From NCBI GenBank assembly GCA_030040395.1, contig JASHTU010000132.1, forward strand, positions 1-12,436: DNA of 12,436 bases, given 5' to 3'. Under the pieces are notes generated by a model. The model searched no databases, was not told the origin of the DNA, and worked only from the letters and a program-made list of their open reading frames with translations. This DNA comes from Acidobacteriaceae bacterium (GTDB lineage: Bacteria > Acidobacteriota > Terriglobia > Terriglobales > Acidobacteriaceae). Of the stretch, positions 1,688 through 12,436 are shown piece by piece (position 1 is the first letter of the stretch; each line of letters opens with the position of its first letter). Position numbers and translations under genes: made by a program.

Positions 1688-4495
1688 TTACAGCTTCTCC
1701 AGATTTGCGAATTTCTCCATCAGCTTTTTCAAGCCGTAACGGGGAAAATCAACCGTCAACTTGGCGTCTTCGCCTTCACCCTCGCGCATCAGCACGGTGC
1801 CCTCGCCATATTTTGCATGGCGCACGCGTTGGCCTTGCTTCAATCCCGTCGCGCCGTAGCTCACCGGAATGTTCATCGCCGGCCGCGCAAATGCGCCGGG
1901 GCGGCCGTCCTTCCCGCCTCCAAAAAAGCGCGCAATGTTGTCGATCGACTGCTCCGGAGGCGTTTCCGTACTTCCACTCTTTGCACCTGCGCTACGGCTT
2001 GACAAAAATTGCCGCGCGCCTGTCCGCGGCGTCTCCTGGCTCTCATCTTCGTAGTTAAAGTGCCGGCGGTCGAACTCGCTCGCGTATCTGCGCTCGCTCC
2101 TCGCTCCGTAACTTCCGTAACCGGAGCCATACGCTGCGCTGGACCACGCCGCTCTGCGGCCGCCCAGGTTCTCGATGAGCCGCACCGGGGTCTCTTCCAG
2201 AAACCGCGATGGAATGCTCGCCTCCGGCGCGTCGTTGCCGTAGCGGCGGCGATAGTGGGCGCGAGTCAATATCAGTGTGTTCATGGCGCGCGTCATGCCC
2301 ACGTAACAAAGCCGCCGCTCCTCTTCGAGTTCGTCGGGATTGTTGAGCGTGCGCGAGTGCGGAAACAGACCCTCCTCCATGCCGGCCAAAAACACCAGGG
2401 GAAACTCCAGGCCTTTCGCGGCATGCAGCGTCATCAGCGTGACCCGCGCGTTGGGGTCAAACTGGTCCGTGTCCGAGGCCAACGCCGCGTGATCCAGAAA
2501 ATCGGCCAGCGTCTCGCCGCGCGCTTCGGCGTCATGCGCGGCGTTGGCCAACTCCTTCAGGTTCTCGATGCGGCTGAAAGCCTCCGGCGAGCCTTCGGCT
2601 TCGAGCGCCTTGATGTACCCGGTGCGGTCGATGATGAATCGGATCAGCTCCGGCAGCGTGGCCGCGTCTCCAGGAGCTCGAAATCCCGGCGCCGCCTTTT
2701 CTTCGTCTTCGGCGACCTCTTCTGCATCGGACTCAAAATCGGCGTATGGATGCGCTGGCTCCGCCTTTGCCGCCCCGGCTTCTTCGTCCCGCTTCCGCAT
2801 CTTCAGAAAAGACCGCTTCGCCGCTTCCGCAAACGGCGAAAAATGCGTTGCGTCCAACAGCGGAATCTGCGCCTCGTTGCCGCCGAAGCTGAAATCGGAC
2901 ACCTCTTCGATCGCTTCCGCAGCCGACTGCTTTTCTTCCGCTCCCGGCGCCTCCGCGCCGAAGGCGAAATCCGTGTCCGCCTCCTCGGCCTCCGTCTCCG
3001 TCACATCGGCCGCCAGTTTGCCCGCAAAATCCGGGTCCAGCATCGCCTGCGCATCCAAAATAAGCTGGCGAAACGATTCCACCGCCATCAGTGCGCGCGT
3101 GGGAATTAGCTTGTTCGCAATCGCCGCGCCCGCCGCGTCCCAAGTCGAGCTGCCGGTCTCCAGAGCCAGCCGCTCCATGGTTTCCAGCGTCGCCTTGCCA
3201 ATGCCCCGCGCCGGCGTGTTGATGACCCTGGCGAGCGCCATCGAATCGTGCGGATTCTTCACCAGACGCAAATACCCCAGCAGGTCTTTGATCTCCGCGC
3301 GCTCGTAAAAGCTGAATCCGCCCACCATGGTGTAGCTGATGTTGTAGCGGCGCAGGGCTTCCTCCACCAGCCGCGATTGCGAGTTGGTGCGATACAATAC
3401 CGCGCAATGCGCGCCCCCGCCCGCGCCTTCGTTCTGCGCCTCGCCCTCATGCTCGCGCAGGAAGGCCTGAATCCTGTCGGCGATGAACAGCGCTTCATTC
3501 TCTCCGTCCGGCGCCTCGTAGTAGCCGATCAGCGATCCGCCCTGCCGGTCCGTCCACAGCTTCTTGCCCTTGCGGCGAACGTTGTTCGCCACCACCGCGC
3601 CCGCCGCCTCCAGAATCACCTGCGTCGAGCGGTAATTCTGCTCCAGGCGCACGATCTGCGCGTTGGGAAAATCCTTCTCGAATTCCAGAATGTTGCGGAT
3701 GTCCGCCCCGCGCCAGGAATAGATGCTCTGGTCCTCGTCGCCCACCGCGCACACATTTTTCTGCTCGCCCGTCAGCAGCTTCATCAGCTCGTATTGCGGT
3801 CGGTTGGTGTCCTGGTACTCGTCCACCAGCAGATATCGATACCGCCGCTGGTAGCGCTCCCGCACTTCGCCGGAAGCGCGCAGCAAGCGCACCGCTTCGA
3901 GCAGCAGGTCGTCGAAATCCATGGCGTTGTTTTTTGCCAGTTCCGCCTGGTAAGCCCGGTAAATGTGGGCGATGCGCTCACTGTTCGGGTCCTTGGAGTC
4001 CAGGTAATACTCCTGCGGATCGACCATGTGATTCTTGGCCCAGGAAATCCGCCCCAGCACTGTGCGCGGCGTGAGCTGCTTCGTATCCAGCCCCATGCGC
4101 CGCATCACCTGCTTCACGATGCCCTGCTGGTCGTCCTCGTCGAAGATGGCGAAAGTCCGCGTCAGTCCTTTATCGCCCACCTTCAGCGCCTCGATATCGC
4201 GCCGCAAAATGCGCACGCACAGCGAATGAAATGTGGAGATGAGCGGCTTGGCCAGCGAAGCATGGCCGATCAGCCGCTCCACGCGCTCCGCCATCTCGCC
4301 CGCGGCCTTGTTGGTGAAGGTGACGGCCGCAATCGCGTCCGGAGCCACGTTTTTCTCCCGGATCAGCCAAGCGATGCGATGCGTAATCACGCGCGTCTTG
4401 CCCGAGCCCGCGCCGGCCAGAATCAGCAGTGGGCCCTCGGTGAGCTCAACCGCGGCGCGTTGTTCGGGGTTCAGGTTGGCGAGGAGCGGGTGCAA
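1688..4495 (-). CDS. uvrD: UvrD/PcrA-type superfamily 1A DNA helicase
   Basis: A 3'-5' ATP-dependent helicase of the UvrD/PcrA/Rep family, acting in excision repair, mismatch repair and clearing of stalled complexes. The 935 residues show all SF1A motifs: Q-motif LNPEQ (8-12), Walker A AGAGSGKT (27-34, K33), Ia TFTNKAAGEM (59-68), II LLVDEYQD (222-229, D225/E226), III VGDEDQSIYSWRG (251-263), IV RLEQNYRST (283-291), V LMTLHAAKGLEF (687-698) and VI ERRLCYVGMTRA (726-737). The C-terminus (about 886-935, GQRVRHAKYGEGTVL) is the Tudor-like PcrA/UvrD tail that contacts RNA polymerase in homologues. It is about 200 residues longer than E. coli UvrD. Much of the excess is an acidic insert at about 492-612 in the 2B region, plus a Ser/Gly/Tyr-rich linker at about 780-885. 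An in-frame TGA lies upstream, and TTG at 4493-4495 is the only usual start codon after it and before the Q-motif. A weak GGA lies 8 nt upstream of that TTG. The gene is divergent from denD. Confidence 0.95.
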   Translation of the reverse strand: MHPLLANLNPEQRAAVELTEGPLLILAGAGSGKTRVITHRIAWLIREKNVAPDAIAAVTFTNKAAGEMAERVERLIGHASLAKPLISTFHSLCVRILRRDIEALKVGDKGLTRTFAIFDEDDQQGIVKQVMRRMGLDTKQLTPRTVLGRISWAKNHMVDPQEYYLDSKDPNSERIAHIYRAYQAELAKNNAMDFDDLLLEAVRLLRASGEVRERYQRRYRYLLVDEYQDTNRPQYELMKLLTGEQKNVCAVGDEDQSIYSWRGADIRNILEFEKDFPNAQIVRLEQNYRSTQVILEAAGAVVANNVRRKGKKLWTDRQGGSLIGYYEAPDGENEALFIADRIQAFLREHEGEAQNEGAGGGAHCAVLYRTNSQSRLVEEALRRYNISYTMVGGFSFYERAEIKDLLGYLRLVKNPHDSMALARVINTPARGIGKATLETMERLALETGSSTWDAAGAAIANKLIPTRALMAVESFRQLILDAQAMLDPDFAGKLAADVTETEAEEADTDFAFGAEAPGAEEKQSAAEAIEEVSDFSFGGNEAQIPLLDATHFSPFAEAAKRSFLKMRKRDEEAGAAKAEPAHPYADFESDAEEVAEDEEKAAPGFRAPGDAATLPELIRFIIDRTGYIKALEAEGSPEAFSRIENLKELANAAHDAEARGETLADFLDHAALASDTDQFDPNARVTLMTLHAAKGLEFPLVFLAGMEEGLFPHSRTLNNPDELEEERRLCYVGMTRAMNTLILTRAHYRRRYGNDAPEASIPSRFLEETPVRLIENLGGRRAAWSSAAYGSGYGSYGARSERRYASEFDRRHFNYEDESQETPRTGARQFLSSRSAGAKSGSTETPPEQSIDNIARFFGGGKDGRPGAFARPAMNIPVSYGATGLKQGQRVRHAKYGEGTVLMREGEGEDAKLTVDFPRYGLKKLMEKFANLEKL

Positions 4496-7759: not shown

Positions 7760-10700
7760 TCACCCCTGGATATCGAACTGCTCCGGGTGCAGCGCGGGAT
7801 CGCTCTTGACGAGCACGTTCTTGCCCACCAACTCCTCGAACTCCGTCAGCCACCGCCCCGCGTTCGATTTGAGCACCTTCACCACTTCGGGATTCACCCG
7901 CACCATCACGTCGGCGCCCTCAAAGTGCTTCCGCATCTTGCGCAGTTCGATGTACATCTCATTGCACACCGTGGTCGGGCTTTTCACCATGCCCGTCGCC
8001 TGGCAGGTTGGGCAGGGCACGCTCAGGGTGCGCTCCAGCGACTGCTTGACCCGTTTGCGCGTAATCGCCACCAGTCCAAAATCATTGAACTGCAGCACCT
8101 TGGTCGGAGCGCGGTCGCTCTTCAAAGCTTCTTCGAGCGCCGCCATCACTTTGAACCGGTTCTTGCGCTCATCCATGTCGATGAAGTCGATCACAATGAT
8201 CCCGCCCAGGTCGCGCAGCCGAATCTGACGCACAATCTCTGGCACTGCGTCGAGGTTGGTCTTCAGAATCGTGTCCTCGAGCCGCGCCGACTTGCCAACA
8301 TACTTGCCCGTGTTGATGTCGATGGCCACCAGCGCCTCAGTCTGGTTGATGACGATCGACCCCCCCGATTTGAGCCACACCTTCGAACGCAGCGCCTTGG
8401 AAATCTCGTCCTGAATGCCGAAGTGTTCGAAGAGCGGCGTGTCCTTGGTGTAAAGCTTCACGCGCCGCACCAGCGAGGGCGAAAAGCGGTTGAGGAAGCG
8501 CACAATCCGCTCGTAGTCGGCCTCCGCGTCCACCCAGATATTCGAGAAGTTGGCGCTCACCTGGTCGCGCAGAATGCGCTCGATCAGCGAGAGATCGTGA
8601 TAGATCAGCGCCGGCGACTTGGAAGCCTCGGAGCGCTGCTTGATCTCGTTCCAGAGATTCATGAGGAAGCGTAGATCGGCCCTCAGCTCCTCTTCTGAAG
8701 CGCCCTCGGCCGCGGTCCTCACAATGAAACCGCCGGAAGCTTCGCCCCGCTCGTGGGTGAGAATCCGCTTCAGACGATGGCGCTCCTCGTCGGAGGCGAT
8801 CTTGCGGCTCACCCCCACATGGTTCACCGTAGGCATGAAGACCAGGAACCGCCCCGGCAGGGCAATGTGGCTGGTGATGCGCGCGCCCTTCTTGGCGATC
8901 GGCTCCTTGGCGATCTGCACCAGAATCTCCTGGCCGGGCTTCAAAAGGTCGGAGATGACCGGTAAATCGGAGGTTTGCATCGATCGGCGCGAAGGCCCGC
9001 GCCGCGGACCCGCTCCTTGCGGCCCGCGGCCTCGATGTCCGCGTCCGGTGCGGTCGCGGTGCTGATGCGCCCCTTCGCGCGGCGCCGCGGGCTGCGCTTC
9101 CGCGGCAGGTTCCTCCTCCTCCTCGATGTCGAATGCCTCTTCCTCTTCTGCGCCGCCCTTCTGGCCCAGTTCTATCTGGATGCGGTGGTCAAGGTGCGCC
9201 TCCTGCAGCAACTCGCCTAAATCGCCGGAGCGAATCTGCGCGGGAAGCGTTTCTTCCTCGTACTCGTCCAGATCGTGCTCCTCGGGCTTGCGATGGCGGA
9301 GATGAGGTTCGAGTTCCTCGCCTTCAATAACTTCCTCCTCGACCACGCCCACGCCGGGAGCATACGCGGAAGTGACGGGCGCTGCTGGGGCTGCGGCAGG
9401 CTTTTCAGCTTCGGGCTCCCGGTCCTTTCGTTTTTTGCCGCCCAAGCCGAAAAGCCGGAAGCCCGTGGGAGGGGCCGGATCCACGCGGTGCGATGCGGAG
9501 GTGTCGGCCTGGGGCTCCGCAGACGCCTCTTCGGCTGCGCTAGCTTCCGCCGTGGGAAGCGCGTCGGCTACGACCTCTGCTGGGGTTTCCTCTTCGACTT
9601 CCCTGCCGGGGAGGCCTTCCTCTCCCAATGTCGACAAAAGCGGCGCCTCCTCAGGCGCGCTCTCGTGGAATCCCGCGACCGGCTCACGCGGCAATGCCTT
9701 TGCGATTTCATGCAGCGCCGGCGGCCGAGACTCTTCTGTCTCCTCGAATATTTCTTCCTCTTCGTCTTCCGCCTCGAGCGCAACCGCAACCTCGGCCCTC
9801 GCCTCCAGAGTTTCTTCCCTTTCCAGTTCGGGACTCGTTTCGGCTTGCGGTTGAGAAGCTTTCTCGGCTTGCGGTTCCGGCCGGCGAGGCGTGCGGAGCG
9901 AAAGCGACTCCCCAGGCAACAGCCCGCTTCCGTCCCACGCGATAGGAGCTTCCACCAGCGTGGAAGGCTTCGACGTGGAAACCCCGCGCGAAGGCGCTTC
10001 CGTGAATCCCGGCGATTCCGGTGCAGGCGTGCCTCCGTATTTCGATAGCGACTCGCCGGGAAGGACAAAAGGCGATGGAACAGAAGTGCGTACAACTGGA
10101 GCTTGAACCAGCGCCGGTTCACGCGTCTCCGCAAAGTGGCTCGCCGAAGCGCCGCCCGGCCCTCCGGCCGGCGGTACCGCCGATGCGTGGATTTGCGAAG
10201 CCGTGTCAGCCTCGGAGCCCGCTTCGGCGGCCAATGCCTCGGTCAACCCGAAATCCGCCCGGCTTTGCTCCTCAACCGCCGGTCCGCGTCCGCGGCGATG
10301 CCGCCGTCCCCGCCAGCGCCGGCTTCCCGCCGGGCTAGCCGTTTCCTGGCTGGATTGCGGCGGGGGCGCCAGTTCACCGGTTGACGAGGCGGCTGCGGCG
10401 AATTCGGGCGCACCGCCGGTTGCCCACCGCCGTTCCTTTTCCGCTTGTTCCTCAATTACTTCCGCTTCCCGGGTTTCCGGTCTTTGGACCGCTTGTTGGC
10501 CGGGACGGGAGGGCTCCTCGCGCCGCGCGCCGTTCGCTCGCCGGACTTCGCGAGGCGCTTGGCCTGCCCCGCTTGCCGCAGCCTTCTCAAGTTCCTCGGT
10601 GTCCTCCAGGTCCTCGAGCTCGATGAAGTCGGTTACATAGAGAAACGCATCGCGCTCCAGGCCAAGATCGACAAATGCCGATTGCATGCCAGGTAGGACG

Positions 10701-10843
10701 CGTGTGACCCGGCCGTTGTAAATCGACCCGGCCAGAGTGTATTCGTTTTCGCGTTCGTAATAGATTTCCGCGAGTTGATCATCTTCAAGAATCGCAAGCC
10801 GCGTTTCATGCGGCGTGCTGGAGATGCAAATTTCCTTTGCCAT
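7760..10843 (-). CDS. rng: Ribonuclease E/G with a very large insert in the S1 domain
   Basis: An endoribonuclease that cuts single-stranded AU-rich RNA, with roles in mRNA decay and rRNA processing. The 1027 residues are about twice RNase G length. The first half of the S1 domain (about 35-73, GSIYNGRVTRVLPGMQSAFVD) is separated from the second half (about 628-673, LKPGQEILVQIAKEP) by about 550 residues of charged, Pro/Ala/Glu-rich sequence. The catalytic core follows: 5'-sensor R709/T710 in IVRTA, metal-binding D842 and N844 in AIDIN, D886 in VIDFIDM, and zinc-link CPTC at 944-947. The tail ends about 80 residues later in ALHPEQFDIQG, like RNase G, with no C-terminal scaffold. The insert has Arg-rich blocks (174-187, 596-620), acidic tracts (about 357-371, 501-532, 565-579) and a repeated LPGESLS motif. 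ATG at 10843, beginning MAKEICIS, has AAAGG 4 nt upstream; an upstream TTG (11023) is rejected. The symbol rng rather than rne is a judgement based on the tail. Confidence 0.93.
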   Translation of the reverse strand: MAKEICISSTPHETRLAILEDDQLAEIYYERENEYTLAGSIYNGRVTRVLPGMQSAFVDLGLERDAFLYVTDFIELEDLEDTEELEKAAASGAGQAPREVRRANGARREEPSRPGQQAVQRPETREAEVIEEQAEKERRWATGGAPEFAAAASSTGELAPPPQSSQETASPAGSRRWRGRRHRRGRGPAVEEQSRADFGLTEALAAEAGSEADTASQIHASAVPPAGGPGGASASHFAETREPALVQAPVVRTSVPSPFVLPGESLSKYGGTPAPESPGFTEAPSRGVSTSKPSTLVEAPIAWDGSGLLPGESLSLRTPRRPEPQAEKASQPQAETSPELEREETLEARAEVAVALEAEDEEEEIFEETEESRPPALHEIAKALPREPVAGFHESAPEEAPLLSTLGEEGLPGREVEEETPAEVVADALPTAEASAAEEASAEPQADTSASHRVDPAPPTGFRLFGLGGKKRKDREPEAEKPAAAPAAPVTSAYAPGVGVVEEEVIEGEELEPHLRHRKPEEHDLDEYEEETLPAQIRSGDLGELLQEAHLDHRIQIELGQKGGAEEEEAFDIEEEEEPAAEAQPAAPREGAHQHRDRTGRGHRGRGPQGAGPRRGPSRRSMQTSDLPVISDLLKPGQEILVQIAKEPIAKKGARITSHIALPGRFLVFMPTVNHVGVSRKIASDEERHRLKRILTHERGEASGGFIVRTAAEGASEEELRADLRFLMNLWNEIKQRSEASKSPALIYHDLSLIERILRDQVSANFSNIWVDAEADYERIVRFLNRFSPSLVRRVKLYTKDTPLFEHFGIQDEISKALRSKVWLKSGGSIVINQTEALVAIDINTGKYVGKSARLEDTILKTNLDAVPEIVRQIRLRDLGGIIVIDFIDMDERKNRFKVMAALEEALKSDRAPTKVLQFNDFGLVAITRKRVKQSLERTLSVPCPTCQATGMVKSPTTVCNEMYIELRKMRKHFEGADVMVRVNPEVVKVLKSNAGRWLTEFEELVGKNVLVKSDPALHPEQFDIQG

Positions 10844-11253: not shown

Positions 11254-11371
11254 CTTGCACGAAGCTCAAAAGTCCGCGTGAATTCGAAAAATCCTCGGGC
11301 GCGGCCTTCCTGTCTCCGCGTGCTCATGAACCCAATCCTGCCGGGCTCGCGGTCCATCGGACCTGGCCGGC

Positions 11372-11389
11372 AAATATTTCATTTAAATA
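11372..11389 (-). promoter_or_regulatory. AT-rich island, candidate promoter region for the RNase E/G gene
   Basis: Seventeen of 18 bases are A or T (AAATATTTCATTTAAATA on the plus strand) in an otherwise GC-rich region. It lies about 530 bp upstream of the RNase start and 105 bp after rodA. No clean -35/-10 pair can be picked out. If it is the promoter, the mRNA would carry a leader of roughly 500 nt. Confidence 0.25.
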
Positions 11390-11494: not shown

Positions 11495-12436
11495 CTAGTT
11501 GACGAACCGGCGCATGCGGACATTCATCGCCACACCGAGCGCCAGAAACGTAAACAACACCGAAGATCCGCCGTAACTCATTAACGGCAAAGGGATTCCG
11601 GTAACCGGCATAAAGCCTATGACCATGCCCACGTTGACCCCAATCTGAAAGGTCAATACCGCCACCACTCCCATAATAATGAGGGAGCCGGGCAGGTCCG
11701 CAGCGGTTTGAGCGTTTTGAATCAAACGCATCAATATGAAAAAGTATAGCAGTAGGACGGAAATCGCGCCCACAAAGCCGTGCTCCTCGCTGAAGGCGGC
11801 GAAGATGAAGTCCGTATATGGGATGGGCAGGAAATACCCCTGCGTCTGGCTTCCCTTTTCGGCGCCTTTGCCCCAAATCCCTCCTGAGCCCACGGCAATC
11901 AAAGATTGGCGAATCTGGTATCCGCTGCCCCGGGGGTCCACGTCTGGATTGATGAAGCTCGTCAGTCGCGCCTTTTGGTACGGTTTCAAAATCTTGCCGC
12001 TCGACCATGCGCCTACGATCAGCGATGCCCCACAAACGAACAGGATGGCCGCCTGGCGGAAACTGATGCCGCCCAGCAAGAGGCCGGCAATGAGGATCGG
12101 CGAGTAGGTGAGAGTGGTTCCCAGGTCCGGCTGGATGAGAACCAGAAGCATGGGAATGCCCACAAGGGCAAAAGCCTTGAAGATCTCTCTCCACGTAAGG
12201 TTGCGCCCACCCAGGTTGGCGAAGTAGCGGGCCACCACCAGCACCAGCACCAACTTCACCCACTCCGAAGGCTGGAACTCGAACGGCCCAAGTGCGATCC
12301 ACCGCCGCGCGCCCATCACTTTGCGGCCCACCACCCGAACCGCGACCAGGGAAACCAAAAACAATGCATAAGCCCAGGGCGCCCAGTCGAGAAGACGGTG
12401 GTAATCGATCTTCGCCAGAATGAACATGCCCGCCAG
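11495..12436 (-). CDS. rodA: RodA, SEDS-family peptidoglycan glycosyltransferase (partial, N-terminus beyond right edge)
   Basis: RodA polymerises lipid II into glycan strands at the inner membrane as part of the elongasome, working with PBP2 and the MreBCD proteins. The visible 314 residues run to the C-terminus. Counting from the Met at 12427, the SEDS signatures are QPSEW (52-56), QPDLGTT (99-105), PRGSGYQIRQSLIAVGSGG (about 155-173), YTDFIFA with the conserved catalytic Asp at 196, EEHGF (204-208) and GIPLPLMSYGGSS near the end. Repeated hydrophobic helices separate these. E. coli RodA has 370 residues, and the first transmembrane helices are missing here. The frame stays open to the window edge (codons reading L-A-G before that Met), so the Met is internal. 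The sequence MGARRWIALGPFEFQPSEW favours RodA over FtsW. The neighbouring RNase E/G gene recalls mre/rod/rng clusters. Confidence 0.95.
   Translation of the reverse strand: MAGMFILAKIDYHRLLDWAPWAYALFLVSLVAVRVVGRKVMGARRWIALGPFEFQPSEWVKLVLVLVVARYFANLGGRNLTWREIFKAFALVGIPMLLVLIQPDLGTTLTYSPILIAGLLLGGISFRQAAILFVCGASLIVGAWSSGKILKPYQKARLTSFINPDVDPRGSGYQIRQSLIAVGSGGIWGKGAEKGSQTQGYFLPIPYTDFIFAAFSEEHGFVGAISVLLLYFFILMRLIQNAQTAADLPGSLIIMGVVAVLTFQIGVNVGMVIGFMPVTGIPLPLMSYGGSSVLFTFLALGVAMNVRMRRFVN

What the first reader, a model, noticed from the sequence alone, without database searches (positions are those of the whole stretch)
8963..10624. RNase E/G whose S1 domain is split by a ~550-residue charged, disordered insert
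The S1 fold is interrupted between the ...DAFLYVTDF strand and ...LKPGQEILVQI. Both halves and the catalytic core look intact, and the protein ends RNase G-style after the zinc-link. Alphaproteobacterial RNase E is known to carry a smaller acidic S1 insert; this one is far larger and has Arg-rich, acidic and helix-prone segments like the C-terminal degradosome scaffold of E. coli RNase E. Inference: an internal scaffold, placed at the RNA-entry domain instead of the tail, assembling a degradosome or binding RNA or ribosomes.
Basis: partly seen in the sequence, partly recalled or inferred. Interest (0 to 1): 0.75.

Follow-up and report, generated by a model that had tools for sequence, protein, structure and literature searches.

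The report
RNA-cutting enzyme with giant inserted segment
An RNA-cutting enzyme of an acidobacterium has a 556-residue, probably floppy segment inserted in its RNA-binding domain; short pieces of it have stayed nearly unchanged in relatives, which suggests a docking platform whose partner is still unknown.

Summary
The minus-strand gene 10843..7760 encodes a 1,027-residue RNase E/G whose S1 domain is split by a 556-residue charged, predicted-disordered segment (residues 74-629). It is no artefact: all 119 inserts measured among 121 closest homologues are 477-615 aa, and the insert evolves as coding sequence. The same site holds 15 residues in E. coli and 74 in Caulobacter. Conserved islands lie inside. 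The strongest is LPGE[ST]: 74 of 74 inserts of the window's class (72 distinct genes) against 0 of 23 long inserts from other Acidobacteriota. Two copies are usual in Acidobacteriaceae-type inserts, 44-64 residues apart although insert length varies from 456 to 865. I read it as an internal scaffold: a bivalent docking and RNA-binding tether on the RNA-entry domain. No partner could be tested. S1 inserts of 50-150 residues are known in alphaproteobacteria and plants, so this is a new variant of a known kind. Against an easy functional reading: most of the insert diverges fast, both AlphaFold models left S1 at low confidence, alphaproteobacteria have both insert and tail, and a PcrA-like helicase in the same window also has an acidic insert.

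The parts
7760..10843 (-). RNase E/G gene, 1,027 aa, ATG at 10843
10625..10843 (-). N-terminal part and first half of S1 (residues 1-73)
   Evidence: aligned to 4oxp and 2bx2; mean top-residue frequency 0.99 in 118 homologues
8957..10624 (-). S1 insert, residues 74-629
   Evidence: present in 119 of 119 measured homologues
10283..10327 (-). Arg-rich Trp island GSRRWRGRRHRRGRG (173-187)
   Evidence: strict pattern in 113 of 119 closest-homologue and 36 of 74 class inserts
10034..10075 (-). first LPGES motif (257-270, SPFVLPGESLSKYG)
9890..9943 (-). second LPGES motif (301-318, IAWDGSGLLPGESLSLRT)
9422..9469 (-). PTGFRLFGLGGKKRKD island (459-474), near relatives only
   Evidence: pattern FxxFG in 116 of 119 closest-homologue but 13 of 74 class inserts
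9308..9373 (-). acidic island (491-512)
9158..9286 (-). acidic segment and amphipathic helix island (520-562); helix 543-558 in the model
8978..9064 (-). Arg/Gly-rich patch before the second S1 half (594-622)
   Evidence: last 40 insert residues net positive in 69 of 71 class inserts
7763..8956 (-). second half of S1, 5' sensor, catalytic domain, zinc-link and short C-terminal end (630-1027)
11495..12427 (-). rodA-like gene upstream (runs to the window edge region); rodA hit also present in 73 of 80 named loci
   Evidence: PF01098

Best explanation
The insert is an internal disordered scaffold of an RNA-decay enzyme. Shown by sequence: a normal RNase E/G core whose S1 domain is opened at the same site as in alphaproteobacterial RNase E by a 556-residue coding segment, in which conserved islands are separated by fast-evolving spacers. 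Inferred: it is disordered in the cell; the Arg-rich patches bind RNA; the paired LPGES motifs, held about 50 residues apart, are a bivalent docking site for one folded partner; the acidic helix is a second docking site in near relatives. Because the tether leaves from the RNA-entry domain, the partner (perhaps a 3' exonuclease or a helicase, as in known degradosomes) would sit at the mouth of the catalytic channel.
For: LPGE[ST] in 74 of 74 class inserts (72 distinct genes; shuffled mean 0.3) and 119 of 119 closest-homologue inserts. In 38 of 71 class inserts the first two copies lie 44-64 residues apart, CV 0.07, against CV 0.19 for total length and 0.32 for the N flank. FP[DE]SK[YF] lies before LPGES in 17 of 33 inserts without a tandem pair and in 0 of 38 others. 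dN/dS 0.26 in the insert. Same site as the Caulobacter insert, in a fragment that binds RhlB there (PMC4245959). Of 60 Acidobacteriota copies, the 17 with inserts of 89-511 aa have no tail and the 20 with tails have intervals of 10-18 aa.
Against: No partner is known and none could be tested. A strict DNA pattern for the motif hit only RNase E/G loci (7 hits in 7 of 14 genomes), so no other protein with the motif points to a partner. Mean top-residue frequency in the insert is only 0.56. 16 of 33 inserts without a tandem pair show no second motif. The insert/tail exclusion is 2-3 changes on the tree and fails in four alphaproteobacterial genes. A PcrA-like helicase in the window also has an acidic insert.
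Confidence: 0.5

Rival explanations
1. Self-regulation: the insert acts on its own enzyme. Its acidic stretches mimic RNA and cover the S1/5'-sensor channel, the Arg-rich patches capture RNA and displace them, and LPGES docks on the enzyme's own surface, so the insert gates substrate entry or drives condensates without a dedicated protein partner.
For: In Caulobacter the helical S1 insert lies where RNA binds in E. coli, and the authors suggest acidic side chains could mimic RNA; deletion of the insert in Arabidopsis RNase E reduces activity, as cited there (PMC4245959). Whole-insert median net charge is -54 while the last 40 residues are net positive in 69 of 71 class inserts. The strict motif pattern was found only in RNase E/G.
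Against: AlphaFold2 gave no confident contact or structure for LPGES (residues 244-262 below pLDDT 50), but the model is too weak to count much. Inserts of other lineages keep the site and lose the motif (0 of 23), which is odd if the motif docks on the conserved core.
Confidence: 0.25
2. Mostly neutral inflation: this lineage tolerates acidic, low-complexity inserts in loops of core enzymes. One or two short motifs are useful and the rest is spacer with no scaffold role.
For: Insert length varies from 333 to 865 aa within the class; mean top-residue frequency 0.56; a PcrA/UvrD-like helicase in the same window has 136 residues where PcrA 1pjr has 13.
Against: Purifying selection on the insert (dN/dS 0.26 against L031), class-wide LPGE[ST] and tight spacing of the pair. 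How common such inserts are in other enzymes of the lineage was not surveyed.
Confidence: 0.15
3. Assembly or frameshift artefact, or two genes wrongly read as one.
For: The window's assembly is 674 contigs and 77% complete; three of 80 named relatives have the frame broken upstream of the core.
Against: 119 of 119 measured homologues carry the insert in one frame, 73 of 80 named loci too, including isolate genomes such as Terriglobus roseus L057; coding signature.
Confidence: 0.01

Closest known systems
Alphaproteobacterial RNase E S1 insert (Caulobacter crescentus, PDB 4oxp; PMC4245959)
   Same: Same site in S1: residue 70 pairs with chain residue 91 and 629 with 166. Charged and predicted disordered; partly helical in the crystal; RhlB binds a fragment (1-274) that includes it.
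   Different: 74 residues in Caulobacter, and 66-168 in four alphaproteobacterial genes on plasmid records, against 556. None of those four has LPGE[ST]; they also have 286-607 residues after the aligned core. RhlB binding to the insert itself is not proven there and not tested here.
E. coli RNase E C-terminal degradosome scaffold
   Same: Long disordered region punctuated by short segments that bind partners (passage of PMC4245959).
   Different: Lies after the catalytic part, not inside S1. No E. coli microdomain was searched for in the insert.
RNase G (Rng)
   Same: Short C-terminal end; the RNase G model is the best NCBIfam score.
   Different: 495.4 bits against a cut-off of 594; in six Acidobacteriota copies aligned without tail the same interval can be as short as 23-33 residues (e.g. 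L118, L122, L133).
Tail-type RNase E of other Acidobacteriota families
   Same: Same family of enzymes in the same phylum, with Arg-rich and acidic extra sequence.
   Different: Separate part of the tree, extra region after the zinc-link, 10-18 residues at the S1 site; the 20 copies examined all come from genomes with two or three PF10150 matches.

Membership tests
RNase E/G (Rne/Rng) | PF10150 catalytic domain and Rne/Rng model over cut-off | tested here: met
   347.5 against 25.5 bits; TIGR00757 478.5 against 325.95
RNase E/G (Rne/Rng) | Catalytic-site segments (AIDIN, IDFIDM) and CPxC zinc-link | tested here: met
   aligned to E. coli 2bx2; that they hold the metal and zinc ligands is recalled
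RNase G equivalog | NCBIfam PRK11712 cut-off | tested here: not met
   495.4 against 594 bits; the split S1 may itself lower the score
S1-inserted RNase E (alphaproteobacterial/plant kind) | Insert at this S1 site | tested here: met
S1-inserted RNase E (alphaproteobacterial/plant kind) | Charged and predicted disordered | tested here: met
S1-inserted RNase E (alphaproteobacterial/plant kind) | About 50-150 residues long (PMC4245959) | tested here: not met
   556 residues
S1-inserted RNase E (alphaproteobacterial/plant kind) | Helicase binding by the S1/5'-sensor part | not testable with these tools
   needs a binding experiment; shown only for Caulobacter
Degradosome RNase E with C-terminal scaffold | Large non-catalytic C-terminal region | tested here: not met
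   84 residues from C944 to the end
Degradosome RNase E with C-terminal scaffold | Complex with PNPase, helicase or a metabolic enzyme | not testable with these tools
   needs co-purification

The most novel reading that the evidence does not exclude
Terriglobia have built a degradosome-like hub inside the S1 domain instead of on a tail: a class-wide LPGES motif, usually paired in Acidobacteriaceae, docks an unidentified partner at the RNA-entry face of the enzyme, and another Acidobacteriota clade uses a different repeated motif (FER[VI]xD[DE]) at the same place.
Probability: 0.4. Interest if true: 0.8.

Novelty: new variant of a known kind. Interest (0 to 1): 0.6.

Why it matters
The RNase E degradosomes in the papers I saw are built mainly on a C-terminal tail. 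Here a whole class of Acidobacteriota seems to have placed a far larger flexible region in the RNA-entry domain and kept a precise motif in it. That gives a concrete bait for finding RNA-decay partners in a phylum for which I found none described, and a natural test of whether it matters that a scaffold sits beside the active site instead of trailing behind it.

Tried and rejected
Artefact or frameshift: rejected.

S1 fold by prediction: two AlphaFold jobs (window protein; shorter homologue L110) left S1 below pLDDT 50, so they neither support nor refute it. No fold search was run.

Solved-structure match for the helix island: one hit, ribosomal protein L25, E = 1.1, taken as chance.

Motif elsewhere in genomes: one strict DNA pattern, 7 hits in 7 of 14 genomes, reversed-pattern control 0. 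All seven lie beside the RNase E/G core by position; six were placed inside the insert and L116 has no N half. The pattern misses half of the genomes, so weaker copies in other proteins would be missed too.

Motif outside the class: 0 of 23 other Acidobacteriota inserts of 100 aa or more; 0 of 6 genes from other phyla, four of them alphaproteobacterial. Other phyla were not surveyed.

Known RNA families in the window: none over the gathering score.

Literature (open-licence library only): no paper held 'RNase E', 'Acidobacteria', 'insertion' and 'S1 domain' together or 'LPGES' with 'RNase E'. In the listings no title or abstract start was about Acidobacteriota S1 inserts; most of those papers I did not open. 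I recall, from no call, a published classification of RNase E/G by the position of extra regions; I did not find it here and it may already name internal insertions.

Full report
What is there. The gene runs on the minus strand from an ATG at 10843 to a stop ending at 7760 and encodes 1,027 residues. It is the only RNase E/G match found in the window's assembly, which is 77% complete. The core is ordinary: PF10150 at 347.5 bits and the Rne/Rng subfamily model over its cut-off; the RNase G model scores best but stays below its cut-off. Against E. coli RNase E (2bx2) our residue 71 pairs with chain residue 78 and our residue 627 with 94. Against Caulobacter RNase E (4oxp) 70 pairs with 91 and 629 with 166 (the query starts 60 residues upstream). 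So the gap holds 15 residues in E. coli, 74 in Caulobacter and about 556 here (residues 74-629, window 8957-10624).

It is real and general near by. Of 121 proteins (the query and the 120 listed hits, the best of 8,000 scored), 119 could be measured; P0006 lacks its start and P0071 failed the end pattern. Inserts are 477-615 aa, median 535. In the window's family 77 of 80 genomes searched have a match, and most listed open frames have about 850-1,210 codons. Of 80 named loci, 73 have both halves in one frame; four of the other seven are cut by a contig end, and in L073, L074 and L082 the frame is broken upstream of the core. Insert lengths, by a definition that gives about 7 fewer residues than mine, are 456-865 in Acidobacteriaceae-type loci, 427-658 in Korobacter/Sulfotelmatobacter-type loci, 333-523 in Bryobacterales-type loci and 143-299 in seven deeper loci (the grouping is mine, by title and length series). 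Against L031 the insert has dN/dS 0.26 and the flanks 0.03-0.04. For four more relatives dS is high or undefined, so only L031 is used for the ratio. A rodA-like gene lies upstream here and a rodA hit is found in 73 of 80 named loci.

Anatomy. In an alignment of 118 close homologues the mean frequency of the commonest residue is 0.99 before, 0.56 in and 0.95 after the insert, but inside the insert conservation comes in islands: an Arg-rich Trp patch (173-187), two LPGES motifs (257-270, 301-318), PTGFRLFGLGGKKRKD (459-474), an acidic island (491-512), an acidic segment with helix (520-562) and an Arg/Gly patch (594-622). In 65 more diverse proteins P262 of the first LPGES column is invariant, and L261, G263, E264 and R178 are at least 90% conserved; seven of these rows lack LPGES, so the invariant Pro partly reflects the alignment. 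LPGE[ST] is in 74 of 74 class inserts (72 distinct genes: L112 and L113 repeat the genes of L030 and L017) against a shuffled mean of 0.3, and in 0 of 23 inserts of 100 aa or more from other Acidobacteriota. The other islands are narrower: the strict RRW pattern is in 36 of 74 class inserts, FxxFG in 13 of 74, the helix pattern in 12 of 71. Some class rows are titled only 'Acidobacteria bacterium'; the three of them put in the tree (L084, L090, L091) fall in the window's starred clade of 17. The class name Terriglobia rests on Terracidiphilus names among the hits and the taxonomy look-up; the window itself is unnamed.

Spacing. In 38 of 71 class inserts with two or more copies (L111, whose second match lies far off, left out) the first two lie 44-64 residues apart, CV 0.07; total length has CV 0.19 and the N flank 0.32. 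In the closest-homologue set 116 of 119 have two or more, 47-56 apart. Of 33 inserts without a tandem pair of this kind (32 single-copy and L075, which has three), 17 have FP[DE]SK[YF] upstream, 27-51 residues from LPGES in 15 of 17, with outliers at 89 and 164; 0 of the other 38 have it. The remaining 16 show no second motif, which counts against a universal pair.

Disorder. Composition and charge-hydropathy put the insert on the disordered side. AlphaFold2 gave low confidence through the insert except a helix at 543-558 in blocks of mean 59 and 56. S1 was also low in this model and in one of a shorter homologue, so the models do not test the S1 fold.

Wider comparison. I fetched 60 RNase E/G copies from Acidobacteriota genomes, picked by hand to cover families, long frames and second copies, not at random. 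Seventeen have S1 intervals of 89-511, 20 have at least 149 residues after the zinc-link CxxC (several cut by the stretch I fetched, so minimum values), 3 have an N-terminal extension and 20 are short; L159, counted as short, is also cut. No copy has both: insert copies have 85-92 residues after CxxC and tail copies have intervals of 10-18. The 17 insert copies come from genomes with one match, the 20 tail copies from genomes with two or three. On the tree (84 rows, quick method, with a long-branch warning) the insert label needs 2 changes and the tail label 3, so this is close to one evolutionary contrast. Four alphaproteobacterial genes have inserts of 66-168 aa and also 286-607 residues after the aligned core, so the exclusion is not general.

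Another clade does it differently. Six inserts (L121, L130, L131, L136, L137, L151) share a FER[VI]xD[DE]-like motif, 16 copies in 6 of 6, shuffled mean 0.10; four of the six match a loose helix pattern resembling the window's helix. These patterns, FP[DE]SK[YF] and LPGES too, were drawn up after reading the sequences, so the shuffles overstate significance. For LPGES the full conservation across a class is the stronger argument.

Mechanism. Shown: a conserved, translated, modular insert in the RNA-entry domain. Inferred: disorder in the cell, RNA binding by the Arg-rich patches, docking by LPGES and the helix, recruitment of decay partners. In Caulobacter RhlB binds a fragment (1-274) that contains the S1 insert, and the insert lies where RNA binds in E. 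coli (PMC4245959; passages, Discussion section). That paper gives 50-150 residues for alphaproteobacterial and plant inserts. PMC5436854 (one passage) calls a roughly 50-aa S1 insert typical of alphaproteobacteria. PMC3071783 (passages) prints 511 beside 'Fibrobacteres/Acidobacteria group' in a table that I did not read in full.

Doubts. No partner is known. A PcrA/UvrD-like helicase in the same window (1691-4495) has 136 residues where PcrA 1pjr has 13, so the lineage may simply tolerate acidic inserts; how common that is was not surveyed. The genome-wide motif search was one strict pattern and is a weak test.

Verdict. The internal-scaffold reading is plausible and strengthened by class-wide LPGES and the even spacing of the pair, but not proven. 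It is a new variant of the known S1-inserted RNase E.

Noticed in passing
window 2660-3067 (within 1691-4495, minus strand): PcrA/UvrD-like helicase with 136 residues (477-612, acidic by eye) where PcrA 1pjr has 13; a second core enzyme with an internal insert in the same window.
   Followed up: partly
window 11306-11374 (minus strand): Conserved hairpin-like element followed by an ATGAGCACGC-like stretch in the long rodA-RNase E/G intergenic region; nhmmer finds it in 12 of 80 named loci; no Rfam match in the window.
   Followed up: partly
L121, L130, L131, L136, L137, L151: S1 inserts of another Acidobacteriota clade carry a repeated FER[VI]xD[DE]-like motif (16 copies in 6 inserts); four of six also match a helix pattern like the window's.
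   Followed up: partly
L134, L154, L174, L175: Tails of tail-type RNase E share a short motif like RS[DE]ELMPAA (NELMPAA in L175).
   Followed up: no
L141, L142, L168: RNase E/G copies with N-terminal extensions of 170-410 residues (to the furthest upstream ATG) and short S1 intervals.
   Followed up: no
L073, L074, L082: Reading frame broken upstream of the core in three metagenome-assembled relatives; error or real break not distinguished.
   Followed up: no
17 of 33 class inserts without a tandem LPGES pair: FP[DE]SK[YF] motif upstream of LPGES, possibly related to it.
   Followed up: partly
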